Assembly (NCBI RefSeq): GCF_022788695.1
Contig: NZ_CP085154.1
Location: 930,001-994,000, forward strand
Direction of reading: 5' to 3'
Source of the DNA: Pseudosulfitobacter sp. DSM 107133
Lineage (GTDB): Bacteria; Pseudomonadota; Alphaproteobacteria; Rhodobacterales; Rhodobacteraceae
DNA length: 64,000 nt
Shown here: one piece after another, positions 223 through 31,957 of the stretch
Numbering within the stretch: the stretch's first letter is position 1
Layout of the letters: each line of letters opens with the position of its first letter
Notes under the pieces: generated by a model
What the model saw: only the letters and a program-made list of their open reading frames with translations
Databases searched by the model: none
Told to the model about the DNA's origin: nothing
Made by a program: the position numbers and the translations under genes

Positions 223-232
223 TGGTATACCA
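223..232. promoter_or_regulatory. GntR (FadR-type) operator TGGTATACCA, copy 1
   Basis: A perfect 10-bp palindrome lies 45 bp before the ATG of the first dehydrogenase, within a wider near-symmetric stretch (CAAA on the left, AAATTG on the right). It fits the TNGT..ACNA pattern known for FadR-subfamily GntR proteins. The same core recurs beside the GntR gene (14664, 14719) and before the sugar-acid dehydratase (31666). Confidence 0.7.
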
Positions 233-277
233 AATTGCCAACGTGCGGCAAGCACTGCGGACATCGGGAGAGAGAAC

Positions 278-1009
278 ATGCCATCCATTATCATCACAGG
301 CGCCGGCAGCGGCGTTGGGCGCGCCACGGCACAGGCTTTTATTGGAGCGGGCTGGGAGGTTGCACTGATCGGGCGGCGGACCGCACCGCTGGAGGAGACA
401 GCGGGGGACAGCGGTGCGCTGGTGCTGGCCTGTGATGTGACAGATGAGGACGCAACCGAAGCGGCCTTTGCCAGGGCGGCACAGACGTGGGGGCGCATTG
501 ATGCGCTGTTCAACAACGCGGGCGTGTCGCTGGGCGGTGCGCCGCTGGACGAGCTGAAGGTGGCGGATATTCGCGCCCTGCTGGATGTGAACATCATGGG
601 CGCGTTCATCGCCGCGCGCGCCGCCTTTGGGCAGATGCGCAAACAGGACCCGCAGGGCGGGCGCATCATCAACAACGGCTCGGTCAGCGCCTATGTGCCG
701 CGCTGGGGCTCGGCGCCCTATACGGCGTCAAAACATGCGATCACCGGGCTGACACGCACGATTTCACTGGACGGGCGGCCGTTCAACATTGCCTGCGGGC
801 AGATCGACATTGGCAACGCGCTGACCGACATGGCCGCGAAAATGACCAAGGGCGTGCCGCAAGCCGACGGGTCGAACGCGATCGAGCCGGTGATGGATGT
901 GGCCAATGTGGCGTCCTCGGTGCTGCATATGGCCAGCCTGCCGCTGGATGCGAATGTGCAGTTCATGACGGTGATGGCGACGAACATGCCCTATATCGGG
1001 CGCGGCTGA
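278..1009 (+). CDS. SDR family NAD(P)-dependent oxidoreductase
   Basis: A 243-residue classical short-chain dehydrogenase. The cofactor motif TGAGSGVG lies near residues 8-15, NNAG near 83-86, and the catalytic YTASK near 150. The start is the ATG after GGGAGAG; an upstream in-frame start would add 30 residues that do not fit the family and would cover the operator. The C-terminal half is a little unusual: after the active site it reads ACGQIDIGNALTDMA where most relatives have a proline-glycine loop. It is the first gene of a tightly packed operon ending at 6801, and its stop overlaps the next start (TGATG). The substrate cannot be read from sequence; context suggests oxidation of a sugar-derived alcohol or acid. 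Confidence 0.85.
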   Translation: MPSIIITGAGSGVGRATAQAFIGAGWEVALIGRRTAPLEETAGDSGALVLACDVTDEDATEAAFARAAQTWGRIDALFNNAGVSLGGAPLDELKVADIRALLDVNIMGAFIAARAAFGQMRKQDPQGGRIINNGSVSAYVPRWGSAPYTASKHAITGLTRTISLDGRPFNIACGQIDIGNALTDMAAKMTKGVPQADGSNAIEPVMDVANVASSVLHMASLPLDANVQFMTVMATNMPYIGRG

Positions 1010-1743
1010 TGCAGATGCAGGGGCAGGCTGCGGTCATCACCGGCGGCGCGCAGGGCATTGGCTATGCGGCGGCACTGGCGTTGGCCGAAAAGGGGGTGAC
1101 GGTGGTCAGCTGGGACATCGACGCGGGCAATGCCGATGCGATGGCCGCTTTGCCGGTGCCGGGTGTGGCGGTGGAATGCGACGTGTCCGATATGGCGTCG
1201 GTGTCGGCGGCCTATGCGCGCACCTGCGACAGCGCGGGCGTGCCAACCATATTGATCAACAGCGCGGGCATTACCGGCCCGAACACCACGCTGGAAGACT
1301 ATGACCCGGAAGCGTGGCGGCGGGTGATTGATCTGAACCTGAACGGGACATTCTATACCAACAAGGTCTGCGTGACGGGCATGAAGACGCGCGGTTATGG
1401 CCGCATTCTGAACATCGCGTCGATTGCAGGCAAAGAGGGCAATCCGAATGCTTCGGCCTATTCCGCCTCCAAGGCAGGGGTGATCGGGCTGACCAAGTCA
1501 TTGGGCAAGGAACTGGCGGGAATGGATATCGCCGTGAACTGCATCACGCCCGCGGCCGCGCGCACGCGGATTTTCGATCAGATGAGTCAGGAGCATATTG
1601 ATTACATGCTGTCAAAAATTCCGCGCGGGCGGTTTCTGGAACTGACCGAGGCGGCGGCGATGATCGTCTGGGCGGTGTCGCCCGAGAACAGTTTTACCAC
1701 CGGAGCGGTGTTCGATCTGTCCGGCGGGCGCGCGACCTACTGA
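1009..1743 (+). CDS. SDR family oxidoreductase (FabG-like)
   Basis: A 244-residue classical SDR whose ATG overlaps the previous stop codon. The glycine motif is TGGAQGIG (about residues 11-18), followed by D near 39 and CDVSD near 62-66, NSAG in place of the common NNAG, the serine in IASIAG, and catalytic YSASK. The end GAVFDLSGGRATY is the usual FabG-like C-terminus. It resembles dehydrogenases that act on 2-keto-3-deoxy or related sugar acids, but FabG-like names are unreliable. Its place directly before ltnD argues for a catabolic role. Two different SDRs in tandem suggest either two successive oxidations or two related substrates. Confidence 0.85.
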   Translation: MQMQGQAAVITGGAQGIGYAAALALAEKGVTVVSWDIDAGNADAMAALPVPGVAVECDVSDMASVSAAYARTCDSAGVPTILINSAGITGPNTTLEDYDPEAWRRVIDLNLNGTFYTNKVCVTGMKTRGYGRILNIASIAGKEGNPNASAYSASKAGVIGLTKSLGKELAGMDIAVNCITPAAARTRIFDQMSQEHIDYMLSKIPRGRFLELTEAAAMIVWAVSPENSFTTGAVFDLSGGRATY

Positions 1744-29816: not shown

Positions 29817-29825
29817 CGCCGCCGC

Positions 29826-31625
29826 TTAGTGGTTGTCGCGCGGCGTCCCCTTGCTGCGCGCGATGTCCTGATAGTTGGCCGCATCGCGCAGGGTCATGCC
29901 CTTGTCGAAAGGCTCGACCAATTCGCGGAAATATTGCTGCCACGGCGACTGGCTGGCGGGGTATTTGTACCCGCCATCGGCCATCAGGGCGCCGCGTCGG
30001 GCTGACAGTTCTTCTTCCGAAAGCAGGATATCAGCGGTGTATTTATTCAAATCAATCCTCAGCCGGTCCCCGTTGCGCAGCAGGGCAAGGCCGCCGTTGT
30101 CCGCTGCCTCGGGCGCGGCGTTCAGGATCGAGGGCGAACCGGAGGTGCCCGATTGCCGACCGTCACCGATACAGGGCAGCGCCTTGATCCCCTGTTTCAA
30201 CAGATAGGACGGCGCGCGCATGTTCACGACTTCGGCGCCGCCGGGATAGCCCTTTGGCCCCGCGCCGCGCATCACCAGAATGCAATTCGCGTCGATGTTC
30301 TCGGCCGGATCGTCGATGCGGTGGTGATAATCCTCGGGTCCGTCGAACACCACGACGCGGCCTTCGAACGCTTCGGGGTCGTCGGGGTTGCTGAGGTATG
30401 CCTTGCGAAAGGCCGCGTCGATCACGCTGGTTTTCATGATCGCGCTGTCGAACAGCGTGCCCTTGAGGTTGATAAAGCCCGCGTTCTGCATCAGCGGTGC
30501 CTCGACCGTGCGGATCACGTCGTCGTTCACCGACGCCTTTTGCGTGCAGTTGGTGGCCATGGTCTGACCGTTCGCTGTGATCGCATCGGGGTTGGGCAGC
30601 AGGCCCGCGCGCAGCAGCGCACCGATCACCGCAGGCACGCCGCCCGCGCGGTGGAAATCCTCGCCCAGATAAGTGCCCGCCGGTTGCAGGTTGACCAACA
30701 GCGGGATGTGGTGGCCGTGTGCCTGCCAGTCGTCATTGTCCAGCGGCACGCCCAGATGCCGCGCCACGGCGTTCAGGTGGATCGGCGCGTTGGTCGAGCC
30801 GCCAAGGGCCGAGTTCACGGCGATGGCATTCTCGAACGCCTCGCGGGTCATGATGTCGGACGGGCGCAGATCGTCCCAGACCATGTCGACGATACGCTTG
30901 CCGGTTTCATAGCTGATCTGCCCGCGTTCGCGGTAGGGCGCGGGGATCGCGGCGGCACCGGGCAATTGCATCCCCAGCGCCTCGGCCAGCGAATTCATCG
31001 TGGTCGCGGTGCCCATGGTGTTGCAGAAGCCCACCGACGGGGCCGATGCGGCGGCGATTTCCATGAATTGTTCGTCGTTGATCTCGCCCGAGGCCAGCCG
31101 TTCGCGGGCCTTCCAGATCACGGTGCCCGAGCCTGCGCGCTCGCCCTCGAACCAGCCGTTCAGCATGGGGCCGACCGAGAGGGCAATGGCGGGGATGTTC
31201 ACCGTGGCGGCGGCCATCAGCAGGGCGGGAGTGGTCTTGTCACAGCCGATGTTCAGCACCACGCCGTCCAGCGGATAGCCGTACAGCGCCTCGACCAGAC
31301 CCAGATAGGCCAGGTTGCGGTCCAGCATCGCGGTGGGGCGTTTGCCGGTTTCCTGAATGGGGTGCACCGGCACTTCCATCGGCACACCACCGGCGGCAAT
31401 GATGCCGTCGCGCACGCGCTTGGTCAGTTCCAGGTGGTGGCGGTTGCAGGGGCTGAGGTCGCTGCCGGTCTGGGCGATGCCGATGATCGGCTTGCCCGAT
31501 TGCAGCTCTTCGCGGGTCAGCCCGTAGTTCAGATAGCGTTCCAGGTAGAGCGCCGTCATTTCCATGTTGTCCGGGTTCAGGAACCATTTTCGCGAACGTA
31601 AATCCTGCGGGCGTATCTTGGACAT
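29826..31625 (-). CDS. IlvD/EDD-family sugar-acid dehydratase (xylonate/arabonate dehydratase-like)
   Basis: A 599-residue enzyme of the dihydroxy-acid dehydratase family. Iron-sulfur cysteines are visible in TGSDLSPCN, LNIGCDKTTPA and FCNTMGTATTMN; GDGRQSGTSGSPSILN is the conserved C-terminal loop. Its N-terminus (RSRKWFLNPDNMEMTALYLE) and its C-terminal DNH ending follow the pattern of Caulobacter XylD-type aldonate dehydratases rather than of IlvD proper. It should convert an aldonic acid to the 2-keto-3-deoxy acid. The gene stands alone but carries a GntR operator 41 bp upstream of its start, linking it to the TRAP transporter and to the SDR/FAH pair, which would process its product. Confidence 0.88.
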   Translation of the reverse strand: MSKIRPQDLRSRKWFLNPDNMEMTALYLERYLNYGLTREELQSGKPIIGIAQTGSDLSPCNRHHLELTKRVRDGIIAAGGVPMEVPVHPIQETGKRPTAMLDRNLAYLGLVEALYGYPLDGVVLNIGCDKTTPALLMAAATVNIPAIALSVGPMLNGWFEGERAGSGTVIWKARERLASGEINDEQFMEIAAASAPSVGFCNTMGTATTMNSLAEALGMQLPGAAAIPAPYRERGQISYETGKRIVDMVWDDLRPSDIMTREAFENAIAVNSALGGSTNAPIHLNAVARHLGVPLDNDDWQAHGHHIPLLVNLQPAGTYLGEDFHRAGGVPAVIGALLRAGLLPNPDAITANGQTMATNCTQKASVNDDVIRTVEAPLMQNAGFINLKGTLFDSAIMKTSVIDAAFRKAYLSNPDDPEAFEGRVVVFDGPEDYHHRIDDPAENIDANCILVMRGAGPKGYPGGAEVVNMRAPSYLLKQGIKALPCIGDGRQSGTSGSPSILNAAPEAADNGGLALLRNGDRLRIDLNKYTADILLSEEELSARRGALMADGGYKYPASQSPWQQYFRELVEPFDKGMTLRDAANYQDIARSKGTPRDNH

Positions 31626-31957
31626 CTGGTGGCTCCTTCGGGGCGTGATTCAGCGCGTTTGTGTTTGGTATACCATCTTGAAGGCAAGACGGGGGGCGTG
31701 TCCAGTGCCCGTGTGACCTGCAAGGCCAGATCGCCGAACCTGACAGGCTTGGGGATGGGGGCGGCGCGTTGGTGGAAACAACTGGGGCGGAGATAATGGC
31801 AGGCGCATGCGTGGTGGCCGCATTGCGCCCAAGAAATCCTCGGGTCCTAGGGTCCAGACCCGAAGCCTGAAGCAGAAAAGCCTGCCGGAATGTGCTAGGA
31901 TCATGCGGCGTGAGGCAGCCATACTTCCAAGAGCCGACCCATAAGGAGGACGGTTAG
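31626..31957. other. Gene-free divergent region holding the dehydratase promoter
   Basis: This gap of about 330 bp separates the dehydratase (minus) from the small monooxygenase gene (plus). It contains the GntR operator at 31666 and, next to the plus-strand gene, AAGGAGGA at 31943-31950. I see no further gene or RNA. Confidence 0.6.
31666..31675. promoter_or_regulatory. GntR operator TGGTATACCA, copy 4
   Basis: A perfect palindrome 41 bp upstream of the dehydratase start, more than 17 kb from the regulator gene. The flanks (TGTGTT on the left, TCTTG on the right) resemble those of the other copies. Confidence 0.7.

What the first reader, a model, noticed from the sequence alone, without database searches (positions are those of the whole stretch)
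223..31675. A four-site FadR-type regulon joins distant sugar-acid genes
By my reading the core GGTATACC occurs at four intergenic places in the window: 223-232 before the tetronate operon, 14664-14673 and 14719-14728 between the GntR gene and the TRAP transporter, and 31666-31675 before the sugar-acid dehydratase. Each lies 40-80 bp from a start codon. The GntR-FCD protein at 13915-14592 is the natural binder. This predicts one regulator controlling uptake, dehydration and downstream metabolism from three separate loci.
Basis: partly seen in the sequence, partly recalled or inferred. Interest (0 to 1): 0.78.

Follow-up and report, generated by a model that had tools for sequence, protein, structure and literature searches.

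The report
Roseobacter-type sugar-acid repressor and its operators
A marine bacterium appears to switch on uptake and breakdown of several sugar acids together, through one repressor protein that recognises the same ten-letter DNA palindrome in front of at least five gene groups; the kind of switch is familiar, but this particular network seems undescribed.

Summary
GGTATACC occurs exactly four times in the window, where stated (0.10 expected). The full palindrome TGGTATACCA has five places in the 5.2 Mb genome, all within 39.8 kb: three in the window, two just upstream. With the one-mismatch site at 14664 that makes six operators at five places; the upstream ones precede a 2-hydroxyacid dehydrogenase and a divergent SDR/L-idonate-5-dehydrogenase-like pair.

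Comparative evidence supports the proposed binder. 42 of 43 relatives of the window's GntR-FCD protein have the site upstream of its gene, 34 as a pair 55-60 bp apart; 0 of 7086 control segments have such a pair. Genomes with a close orthologue average 5.1 exact sites, against 0.85 without. In 17 relatives, sites precede first genes (GntR 17/17, DctP 15/15, IlvD 12/13, IdnD 10/10, IdnO-like 11/11) and rarely interior genes. The neighbouring NanR-like regulator does not track the sites.

The pair brackets the likely transporter promoter at constant spacing, which fits repression. Inducer, sign of control and binding are not shown. The motif is a standard FadR-subfamily operator, also beside unrelated FCD regulators in four other genomes. 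New member of a known kind.

The parts
223..232 (.). Operator TGGTATACCA, 45 bp upstream of the ATG (278) of the seven-gene tetronate/dehydratase operon
   Evidence: LtnD orthologues in relatives carry a site in 4 of 6 cases
278..6801 (+). Predicted operon SDR1, SDR2, L-threonate dehydrogenase (LtnD), 3-oxo-tetronate kinase (OtnK), 3-oxo-tetronate-4-phosphate decarboxylase (OtnC), galactarate/altronate-dehydratase-family protein, OtnI-like isomerase
   Evidence: Tightly packed or overlapping ORFs; Pfam; NCBIfam LtnD 403/350, OtnK 525/350, OtnC 298/250 over cut-off, OtnI 269/325 and galactarate dehydratase 365/731 below cut-off
13915..14592 (-). GntR-FCD regulator (P0001), proposed repressor that binds all six operators
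   Evidence: PF00392 and PF07729; D129, H133, H177, H199 and R32, S41, R42, T43 are among 63 columns at least 95% identical in 44 aligned rows
14664..14673 (.). Operator O1, TGGTATACCG (TGGTATACCA in many relatives), 71 bp upstream of the regulator's ATG
   Evidence: part of a conserved pair in 34 of 43 relatives
14681..14709 (+). Likely promoter of the TRAP operon between the two operators: TTGATT (14681-14686) and TAGGGT (14704-14709), 17 bp apart; a TTG(A/C)..GTCGA box and a TA...T box recur in the alignment
   Evidence: 35-row site-anchored alignment, letters checked; promoter reading is inference
14719..14728 (.). Operator O2, TGGTATACCA, at or next to the predicted transcription start of the TRAP operon, 76 bp upstream of the DctP ATG (14805)
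   Evidence: 15 of 15 DctP orthologues have a site
14805..18338 (+). TRAP transporter: DctP substrate-binding protein (14805-15821), DctQ (15868-16737), DctM (16743-18338)
   Evidence: Pfam; closest solved structure of DctP 4pe3, 181 bits
18821..21391 (+). Probable downstream members: EamA transporter, SDR4, FAA-hydrolase-family enzyme (482 bp gap after DctM, so own promoter possible)
   Evidence: Pfam; NCBIfam 2,4-didehydro-3-deoxy-L-rhamnonate hydrolase 444 of 500 cut-off
29826..31625 (-). IlvD/EDD-family sugar-acid dehydratase
   Evidence: PRK13017 subfamily 1019/684; closest solved structures 7m3k 'Galactonate dehydratase' 963 bits and 5oyn 793 bits
31666..31675 (.). Operator TGGTATACCA, 40 bp upstream of the dehydratase ATG
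   Evidence: 12 of 13 relatives' IlvD genes have a site

Best explanation
The GntR-FCD protein at 13915-14592 is a local repressor of a sugar-acid catabolic regulon. Its dimer reads the palindrome TGGTATACCA. Six operators lie in about 40 kb: two around the TRAP transporter promoter, which also face the regulator's own gene, and one each before the tetronate operon, the IlvD/EDD dehydratase, a divergent pair of an L-idonate-5-dehydrogenase-like gene and a gluconate-5-dehydrogenase-like SDR, and a 2-hydroxyacid dehydrogenase. Without substrate, repressor on both transporter operators closes that promoter and limits its own synthesis; single operators keep the catabolic operons low. A sugar acid or an intermediate, probably held at the FCD metal site, releases it, and uptake, oxidation, dehydration and the tetronate branch come on together. 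Shown by sequence: the sites, their clustering, their conservation and their co-occurrence with this regulator. Inferred: binding, repression rather than activation, autoregulation, cooperativity. Unknown: the inducer.
For: All 5 exact sites of the genome lie in 39.8 kb around the regulator. 42 of 43 regulator relatives have a site upstream of the regulator gene (at most one mismatch) and 34 of 43 a 55-60 bp pair, against 77 and 0 of 7086 control segments. Mean exact sites per genome are 5.10 in 21 with a close orthologue (20 of 21 have at least 3), 1.43 in 7 with a weak one and 0.85 in 121 without; reversed-pattern control 1.62, 1.14 and 1.82; Mann-Whitney p 4.8e-13 without the window's genome. 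In 17 relatives sites precede GntR 17/17, DctP 15/15, IlvD 12/13, IdnD 10/10, the IdnO-like SDR 11/11, LtnD 4/6 and 2HADH 5/11; genes mostly interior to operons have SDR1 0/12, OtnK 0/6, GarD-like 0/11, FAH 0/14, EamA 0/10, SDR4 1/11, HIBADH_a 2/12. The GntR/TRAP pair keeps 55-60 bp spacing while the intergenic region varies 176-249 bp (r 0.07), and a likely -35/-10 lies between the sites. D129, H133, H177 and H199, which fit the FCD metal site (recalled), are at least 95% identical in 44 rows.
Against: No binding or expression data. TGGTATACCA is also found beside non-orthologous FCD regulators (25-30% identity) in 4 of 4 site-rich genomes examined, so the motif alone does not name the regulator. 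9 of 121 genomes without a detected orthologue have three or more sites. The 2HADH site is missing in 6 of 11 relatives and the LtnD site in 2 of 6. Of the 29 regulator matches, those at 48% identity or less mostly show no site within 1.5 kb (L074-L082, one distant hit), so the link holds for close orthologues only. The catabolic genes come from several pathways, so no single substrate explains them all. FadR-subfamily proteins can also activate (general knowledge), and promoter positions are read from sequence only. Stretches of the 17 relatives were fetched partly because they hold sites, which biases the unit counts upward, though interior genes from the same stretches serve as a control.
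Confidence: 0.85

Rival explanations
1. The second GntR-FCD protein nearby (P0002, L007:3467-4174, NanR subfamily, beside OiaK/OiaX-like genes) reads the sites, or at least the two upstream of the window.
For: It is an FCD protein over the NanR subfamily cut-off (278.6/260); one site lies just downstream of the OiaX-like gene; in G027 a 43% relative has an exact site 121 bp upstream.
Against: An exact site stands within 200 bp upstream of 1 of 15 P0002 relatives, the window's own P0002 included. Nine genomes with P0002 but without P0001 have 0-3 sites, six with both have 5-10. The 2HADH and IdnD sites persist in genomes without a detected P0002, e.g. G006 and G005. NanR binds direct repeats TGGTATAW (PMC4494728, passages read).
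Confidence: 0.05
2. Several FCD regulators share the TGGTATACCA operator and overlap on these sites, so it is a crosstalk network and not one regulator's regulon.
For: The genome encodes 19 FCD proteins. In four other genomes the same operator sits beside unrelated FCD proteins.
Against: In this genome every exact site lies in one 40 kb stretch around P0001, none near the 17 FCD genes elsewhere. Site number tracks P0001.
Confidence: 0.1
3. The regulator is an activator, or acts both ways; O1 upstream of the transporter promoter serves activation and O2 represses.
For: O1 lies just upstream of the likely -35. FadR-subfamily proteins are known to do both (general knowledge).
Against: O2 is at or next to the likely start site, and the four single sites lie 20-45 bp from a start codon, where repression is expected; promoter positions are inferred.
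Confidence: 0.15
4. The palindromes are chance or another kind of element (terminators, repeats).
For: Short palindromes can arise by chance; genomes without the regulator average 0.85.
Against: 0.10 expected in the window; conserved pair in 34 of 43 relatives, 0 of 7086 controls.
Confidence: 0.01

Closest known systems
FadR-subfamily (FCD) GntR regulators and their operators (Suvorova et al. 2015, PMC4494728; abstract, passages and sections 10 and 16 read)
   Same: GntR+FCD domains; palindrome with TKGT/ACMA boxes; 2-nt GT-AC spacing as in the UxuR, GntR, HypR, PrpR groups; divergent regulator/transporter pair with double sites at constant distance, which that paper reads as joint control of both operons
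   Different: This orthologous group and its target set were not named in the passages and sections read; its supplementary site lists were not available
UxuR/ExuR hexuronate regulators of enterobacteria
   Same: Sugar-acid regulon; UxuR sites share the 2-nt spacing (PMC4494728); a GGTATACC-like core for UxuR is recalled, from no call
   Different: P0001 scores 49.9 against 442 for the UxuR model and 48.2 against 396 for ExuR; gene content differs
L-threonate/D-erythronate (Ltn/Den/Otn) catabolic pathway
   Same: LtnD, OtnK and OtnC over the NCBIfam cut-offs and D-erythronate dehydrogenase 389/325 at L007:12874-13839
   Different: Here part of a larger FCD regulon; in Brucella the erythronate pathway is controlled by the DeoR-family VdtR (PMC10580937, search listing and start of abstract only)
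NanR
   Same: FCD protein with TGGTAT half-sites
   Different: NanR binds direct repeats (PMC4494728); here the sites are inverted repeats; P0001 scores 73.2 against 260

Membership tests
GntR family, FadR (FCD) subfamily | N-terminal GntR winged helix and C-terminal FCD domain | tested here: met
   PF00392 55.7 bits (cut-off 27) and PF07729 96.6 bits (cut-off 24.3)
GntR family, FadR (FCD) subfamily | Operator fits NyGTM-N0-1-KACNy with TKGT/ACMA boxes | tested here: met
   TGGT-AT-ACCA at the regulator's own locus in 42 of 43 relatives; consensus from PMC4494728
GntR family, FadR (FCD) subfamily | Protein binds the operator and is released by a carboxylate ligand | not testable with these tools
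   D129, H133, H177, H199 conserved fit the FCD metal site (recalled); no binding data
FadR proper (fatty acid regulator) | Match to the FadR equivalog models | tested here: not met
   No FadR model among the 17 NCBIfam families matched at E 1e-3
UxuR / ExuR | Equivalog score over cut-off | tested here: not met
   49.9/442 and 48.2/396
NanR | Direct-repeat operator and subfamily score | tested here: not met
   73.2/260; sites are inverted repeats
Tetronate (Ltn/Den/Otn) pathway | Dehydrogenase, kinase, decarboxylase and isomerase together | tested here: met
   LtnD, OtnK, OtnC over cut-off; OtnI best hit but below cut-off, 269/325; DenD 389/325

The most novel reading that the evidence does not exclude
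One FCD repressor integrates several C4-C6 sugar-acid routes in the roseobacter-type Rhodobacteraceae, and the regulon stays coherent while its operons are rebuilt. In this genome the GarD-like gene sits in the tetronate operon instead of behind the TRAP genes, SDR1 has left the dehydratase operon, and the dehydratase itself is a distant type (59-61% identical to counterparts that are 75-90% alike, with no closer copy elsewhere in the genome), yet each still stands behind a TGGTATACCA operator. That would make the operator, not the operon, the conserved unit.
Probability: 0.5. Interest if true: 0.5.

Novelty: new member of a known kind. Interest (0 to 1): 0.42.

Why it matters
It links an unnamed transporter, dehydratases, dehydrogenases and the tetronate pathway to one regulator in many Rhodobacteraceae, a large part of them marine. 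This gives a short testable list for the substrate of the transporter and of the IlvD and GarD-like enzymes. It also supplies a clean comparative case of a regulon that survives operon rearrangement and enzyme replacement.

Tried and rejected
Chance motif: rejected. UxuR, ExuR, NanR or FadR orthology: rejected by model scores. Dispersed extra sites in this genome: hits with up to one mismatch are fewer than the reversed-pattern control. Transketolase/SDR3 operon (8963-11617) as a member: 0 of 3 and 0 of 5 relatives have a site. Finding the substrate from solved structures: DctP's best match (4pe3) has a molecule name without a substrate; the dehydratase's best is called galactonate dehydratase, which suggests an aldonate but settles nothing. 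A closer copy of the relatives' dehydratase elsewhere in this genome: none; the best of 4 matches is the window's own at 60%.

Literature: GntR with TGGTATACCA, 0 papers; UxuR/ExuR/binding motif/FadR, 4 listed, one opened (PMC4494728); five spellings of the palindrome, 30 papers, none whose title concerns a bacterial regulator; GGTATACC with regulator, 113 papers, 20 listed, none on a GntR regulator by title; Rhodobacterales/GntR/regulon/TRAP/dehydratase, 1 paper, on MocR regulons; GntR family/roseobacter/sugar acid/TRAP, at least 3 of 4 terms, 7 listed, none opened; UxuR/ExuR/hexuronate/consensus, 4 listed, none opened; threonate/erythronate/GntR, 1 paper, not opened. RegPrecise and supplementary files could not be consulted. 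Structure prediction was not run.

Limits: only the 19 best first-look candidates were scored in many genomes, so some 'no orthologue' calls may be wrong. Of the 80 loci (44-93% identity) were examined and 37 (33% or less; Streptomyces, Clostridiaceae and Thermoclostridium) were not. Of 9 site-rich genomes without the orthologue, 4 were examined at sequence level (G063, G136, G146, G013); G106 and G123 were searched for FCD proteins but their site positions were not listed, so they were not compared; G029, G055 and G081 were not looked at. Stretches were fetched for 17 of the 27 other regulator-bearing genomes. A gene named IdnO was mis-framed and gave no rows; it was redone with the right frame.
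Full report
Observation. GGTATACC occurs four times in the window at exactly the places given; three are the full palindrome TGGTATACCA and one ends in G. Distances from site edge to the start codon are 45, 71, 76 and 40 bp (sequence; start codons checked). Shuffles expect 0.10 matches and none of 100 reached four. The window is C1:930001-994000 of a 5.21 Mb genome. In that whole genome TGGTATACCA has five places, all between C1:921846 and C1:961675. Five random points would lie that close with a probability near 1.7e-8. The scattered GGTATACC matches elsewhere (9 of 15) all lack the flanking T, the flanking A or both, and matches to WTGGTATACCW with up to one mismatch are fewer than the reversed-pattern control (31 and 33 against 67 and 63).

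Two sites outside the window. L007 is C1:915001-931000. One site (L007:6846-6855) lies between an OiaX-like RuBisCO-like gene and a 2-hydroxyacid dehydrogenase whose ATG is 20 bp on. The other (L007:9789-9798) lies between an SDR gene on the minus strand (L007:8967-9725, best named model gluconate 5-dehydrogenase, 287 of 408), 63 bp away, and a zinc dehydrogenase most like L-idonate 5-dehydrogenase (342.6 bits against a cut-off of 469; closest solved structure 6dkh), whose ATG is 38 bp on. Downstream of the latter on the same strand lie a GlcD-like oxidase and a D-erythronate dehydrogenase over its cut-off (389/325).

What the sites control. Units: (a) the seven-gene operon 278-6801 with LtnD, OtnK and OtnC over their NCBIfam cut-offs, an OtnI-like isomerase and a galactarate/altronate-dehydratase-family protein; (b) the regulator gene, 13915-14592 minus; (c) the TRAP transporter genes 14805-18338, with EamA, SDR4 and an FAA-hydrolase-family enzyme further on; (d) an IlvD/EDD dehydratase, 29826-31625 minus, nearest 'galactonate dehydratase' 7m3k at 963 bits and 5oyn at 793; (e) the IdnD-like gene and divergent SDR; (f) the 2-hydroxyacid dehydrogenase.

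Named relatives from GTDB genomes are Rhodobacteraceae such as Pseudosulfitobacter (89-91% identity), Sulfitobacter, Loktanella, Yoonia, Roseivivax, Mameliella and Marivita, plus one Rhizobiaceae bin (44%). I examined 43 of the 80 loci returned. In the 260 bp upstream of the regulator gene, 42 of 43 have at least one site with at most one mismatch (the exception is L189) and 34 of 43 have a pair 55-60 bp apart. Of 7086 random segments from the same loci, 77 have one site and 0 have a pair 50-60 bp apart. In 149 genomes of the family, each from a different genus, 28 have a relative at E 1e-40 or better, the window's genome included. The 21 with at least 190 bits average 5.10 exact sites (20 of 21 have three or more; G086 has two), the 7 weaker ones 1.43, and the 121 without 0.85 (9 of 121 have three or more). 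The reversed pattern averages 1.62, 1.14 and 1.82; Mann-Whitney p 4.8e-13 excluding the window's own genome. Against a wider claim: of the nine most distant regulator matches (L074-L082, 48% identity or less) eight show no TGGTATACC within 1.5 kb and one (L080) shows one.

Conservation of the targets. I mapped fetched stretches from 17 of the 27 other regulator-bearing genomes. Orthologues with a site (at most one mismatch) within 220 bp upstream: GntR 17 of 17, DctP 15 of 15, IlvD 12 of 13, IdnD 10 of 10, IdnO-like SDR 11 of 11, LtnD 4 of 6, 2HADH 5 of 11. Genes that mostly lie inside operons, from the same stretches: SDR1 0 of 12, OtnK 0 of 6, GarD-like 0 of 11, FAH 0 of 14, EamA 0 of 10, SDR4 1 of 11, HIBADH_a 2 of 12. 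Transketolase genes: TktN 0 of 3, SDR3 0 of 5. Some stretches were chosen because they hold sites, so the positive counts are biased upward; the interior genes are the control for that.

Rival reader. A second FCD protein, P0002 (NanR subfamily 278.6/260), lies 25 kb away beside OiaK- and OiaX-like genes. Its relatives occur in 15 of 149 genomes, the window's included, with an exact site upstream in 1 of 15 (G027). The nine genomes with P0002 but no P0001 have 0-3 sites, the six with both have 5-10. P0002 therefore does not explain the sites. Against exclusive ownership of the motif: in all four of the site-rich genomes without P0001 that I examined (G063, G136, G146, G013; four of nine), a different FCD protein, 25-30% identical to P0001, starts 27-110 bp from a TGGTATACCA site. 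The palindrome is a common operator type of the subfamily.

How it probably works. GntR and DctP are both found and divergent in 39 of 43 loci; in 34 of these 39 exactly two sites lie between them. Their spacing stays at 55-60 bp while the intergenic length runs from 176 to 249 bp (r 0.07, p 0.70), and the distance to GntR follows the length (r 0.86). Suvorova et al. (PMC4494728, section 16 read) treat constant spacing as a mark of a pair that controls both operons jointly. An equally simple reason here is that the transporter promoter lies between the sites: a TTG(A/C)..GTCGA box follows O1 and a TA...T box precedes O2 in the 35-row alignment. In the window these are TTGATT at 14681-14686 and TAGGGT at 14704-14709, 17 bp apart, which puts the start at or next to O2. 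This is the layout of a repressor, with joint or looped occupancy possible. D129, H133, H177 and H199 are at least 95% identical in 44 rows, which fits the FCD metal-carboxylate site (recalled), so a sugar acid or its keto product is the likely inducer. Binding, sign and inducer are inference.

Rearranged operons. In the relatives' maps the GarD-like gene sits behind DctM in 11 of 17, SDR1 behind IlvD in 10 of 17 and FAH behind GntR in 11 of 17; the other maps lack the gene, are cut, or are unclear (my reading). In this genome GarD-like and SDR1 are in the tetronate operon, and FAH follows SDR4 on the TRAP side. The dehydratase here is 59-61% identical to those of 13 relatives, which are 75-90% identical to each other, and the genome holds no closer copy, so it looks like a replacement by a distant type. 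These genes still stand behind an operator, with the reservation that a 482 bp gap separates EamA from DctM. One relative, G099, has a KdgK-like kinase (256/400), an HpaI/GarL-like aldolase (289/369), a GFO/IDH-type oxidoreductase and two PhyH-type dioxygenases in the same cluster.

Novelty. The regulator type, operator type and divergent double-site layout are known (PMC4494728). The searches listed no paper that by its title treats this regulator or palindrome; they cover open-licence papers only, and RegPrecise could not be consulted.

Noticed in passing
L007:3467-6819 (C1:918467-921819): Cluster of a NanR-like regulator, an OiaK-like kinase (440 of 700 cut-off) and an OiaX-like RuBisCO-like protein (384 of 700): a divergent relative of the 3-oxo-isoapionate pathway, below the curated cut-offs.
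   Followed up: partly
L007:4204-4216 and L307 (G027): The NanR-like regulator's upstream region holds CTGGTATGATGAG in the window's genome and in G027, on opposite strands relative to the regulator and unlike TGGTATACCA.
   Followed up: no
window 14681-14691 and relatives: The box TTGATTGTCGA just after O1 is strongly conserved as TTG(A/C)NNGTCGA across 35 rows; it may be more than a promoter hexamer.
   Followed up: no
window 29826-31625: The dehydratase is only 59-61% identical to its counterparts in 13 relatives, which are 75-90% alike, yet it keeps the operator: likely replacement by a distant type.
   Followed up: partly
L286, L287, L288, L289: In four other genomes unrelated FCD regulators (25-30% identity) have TGGTATACCA 27-110 bp from their start, so several regulators share this operator.
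   Followed up: partly
L141:10863-11804 and L142:3648-4541: Two PhyH-family dioxygenases lie inside the sugar-acid cluster of a relative (G099), an unexpected partner for such a pathway.
   Followed up: no
window 8963-10848: Two-gene (split) transketolase with an SDR gene after it and a DRL-family oxidoreductase before it on the other strand; no operator found here or in the few relatives checked.
   Followed up: partly
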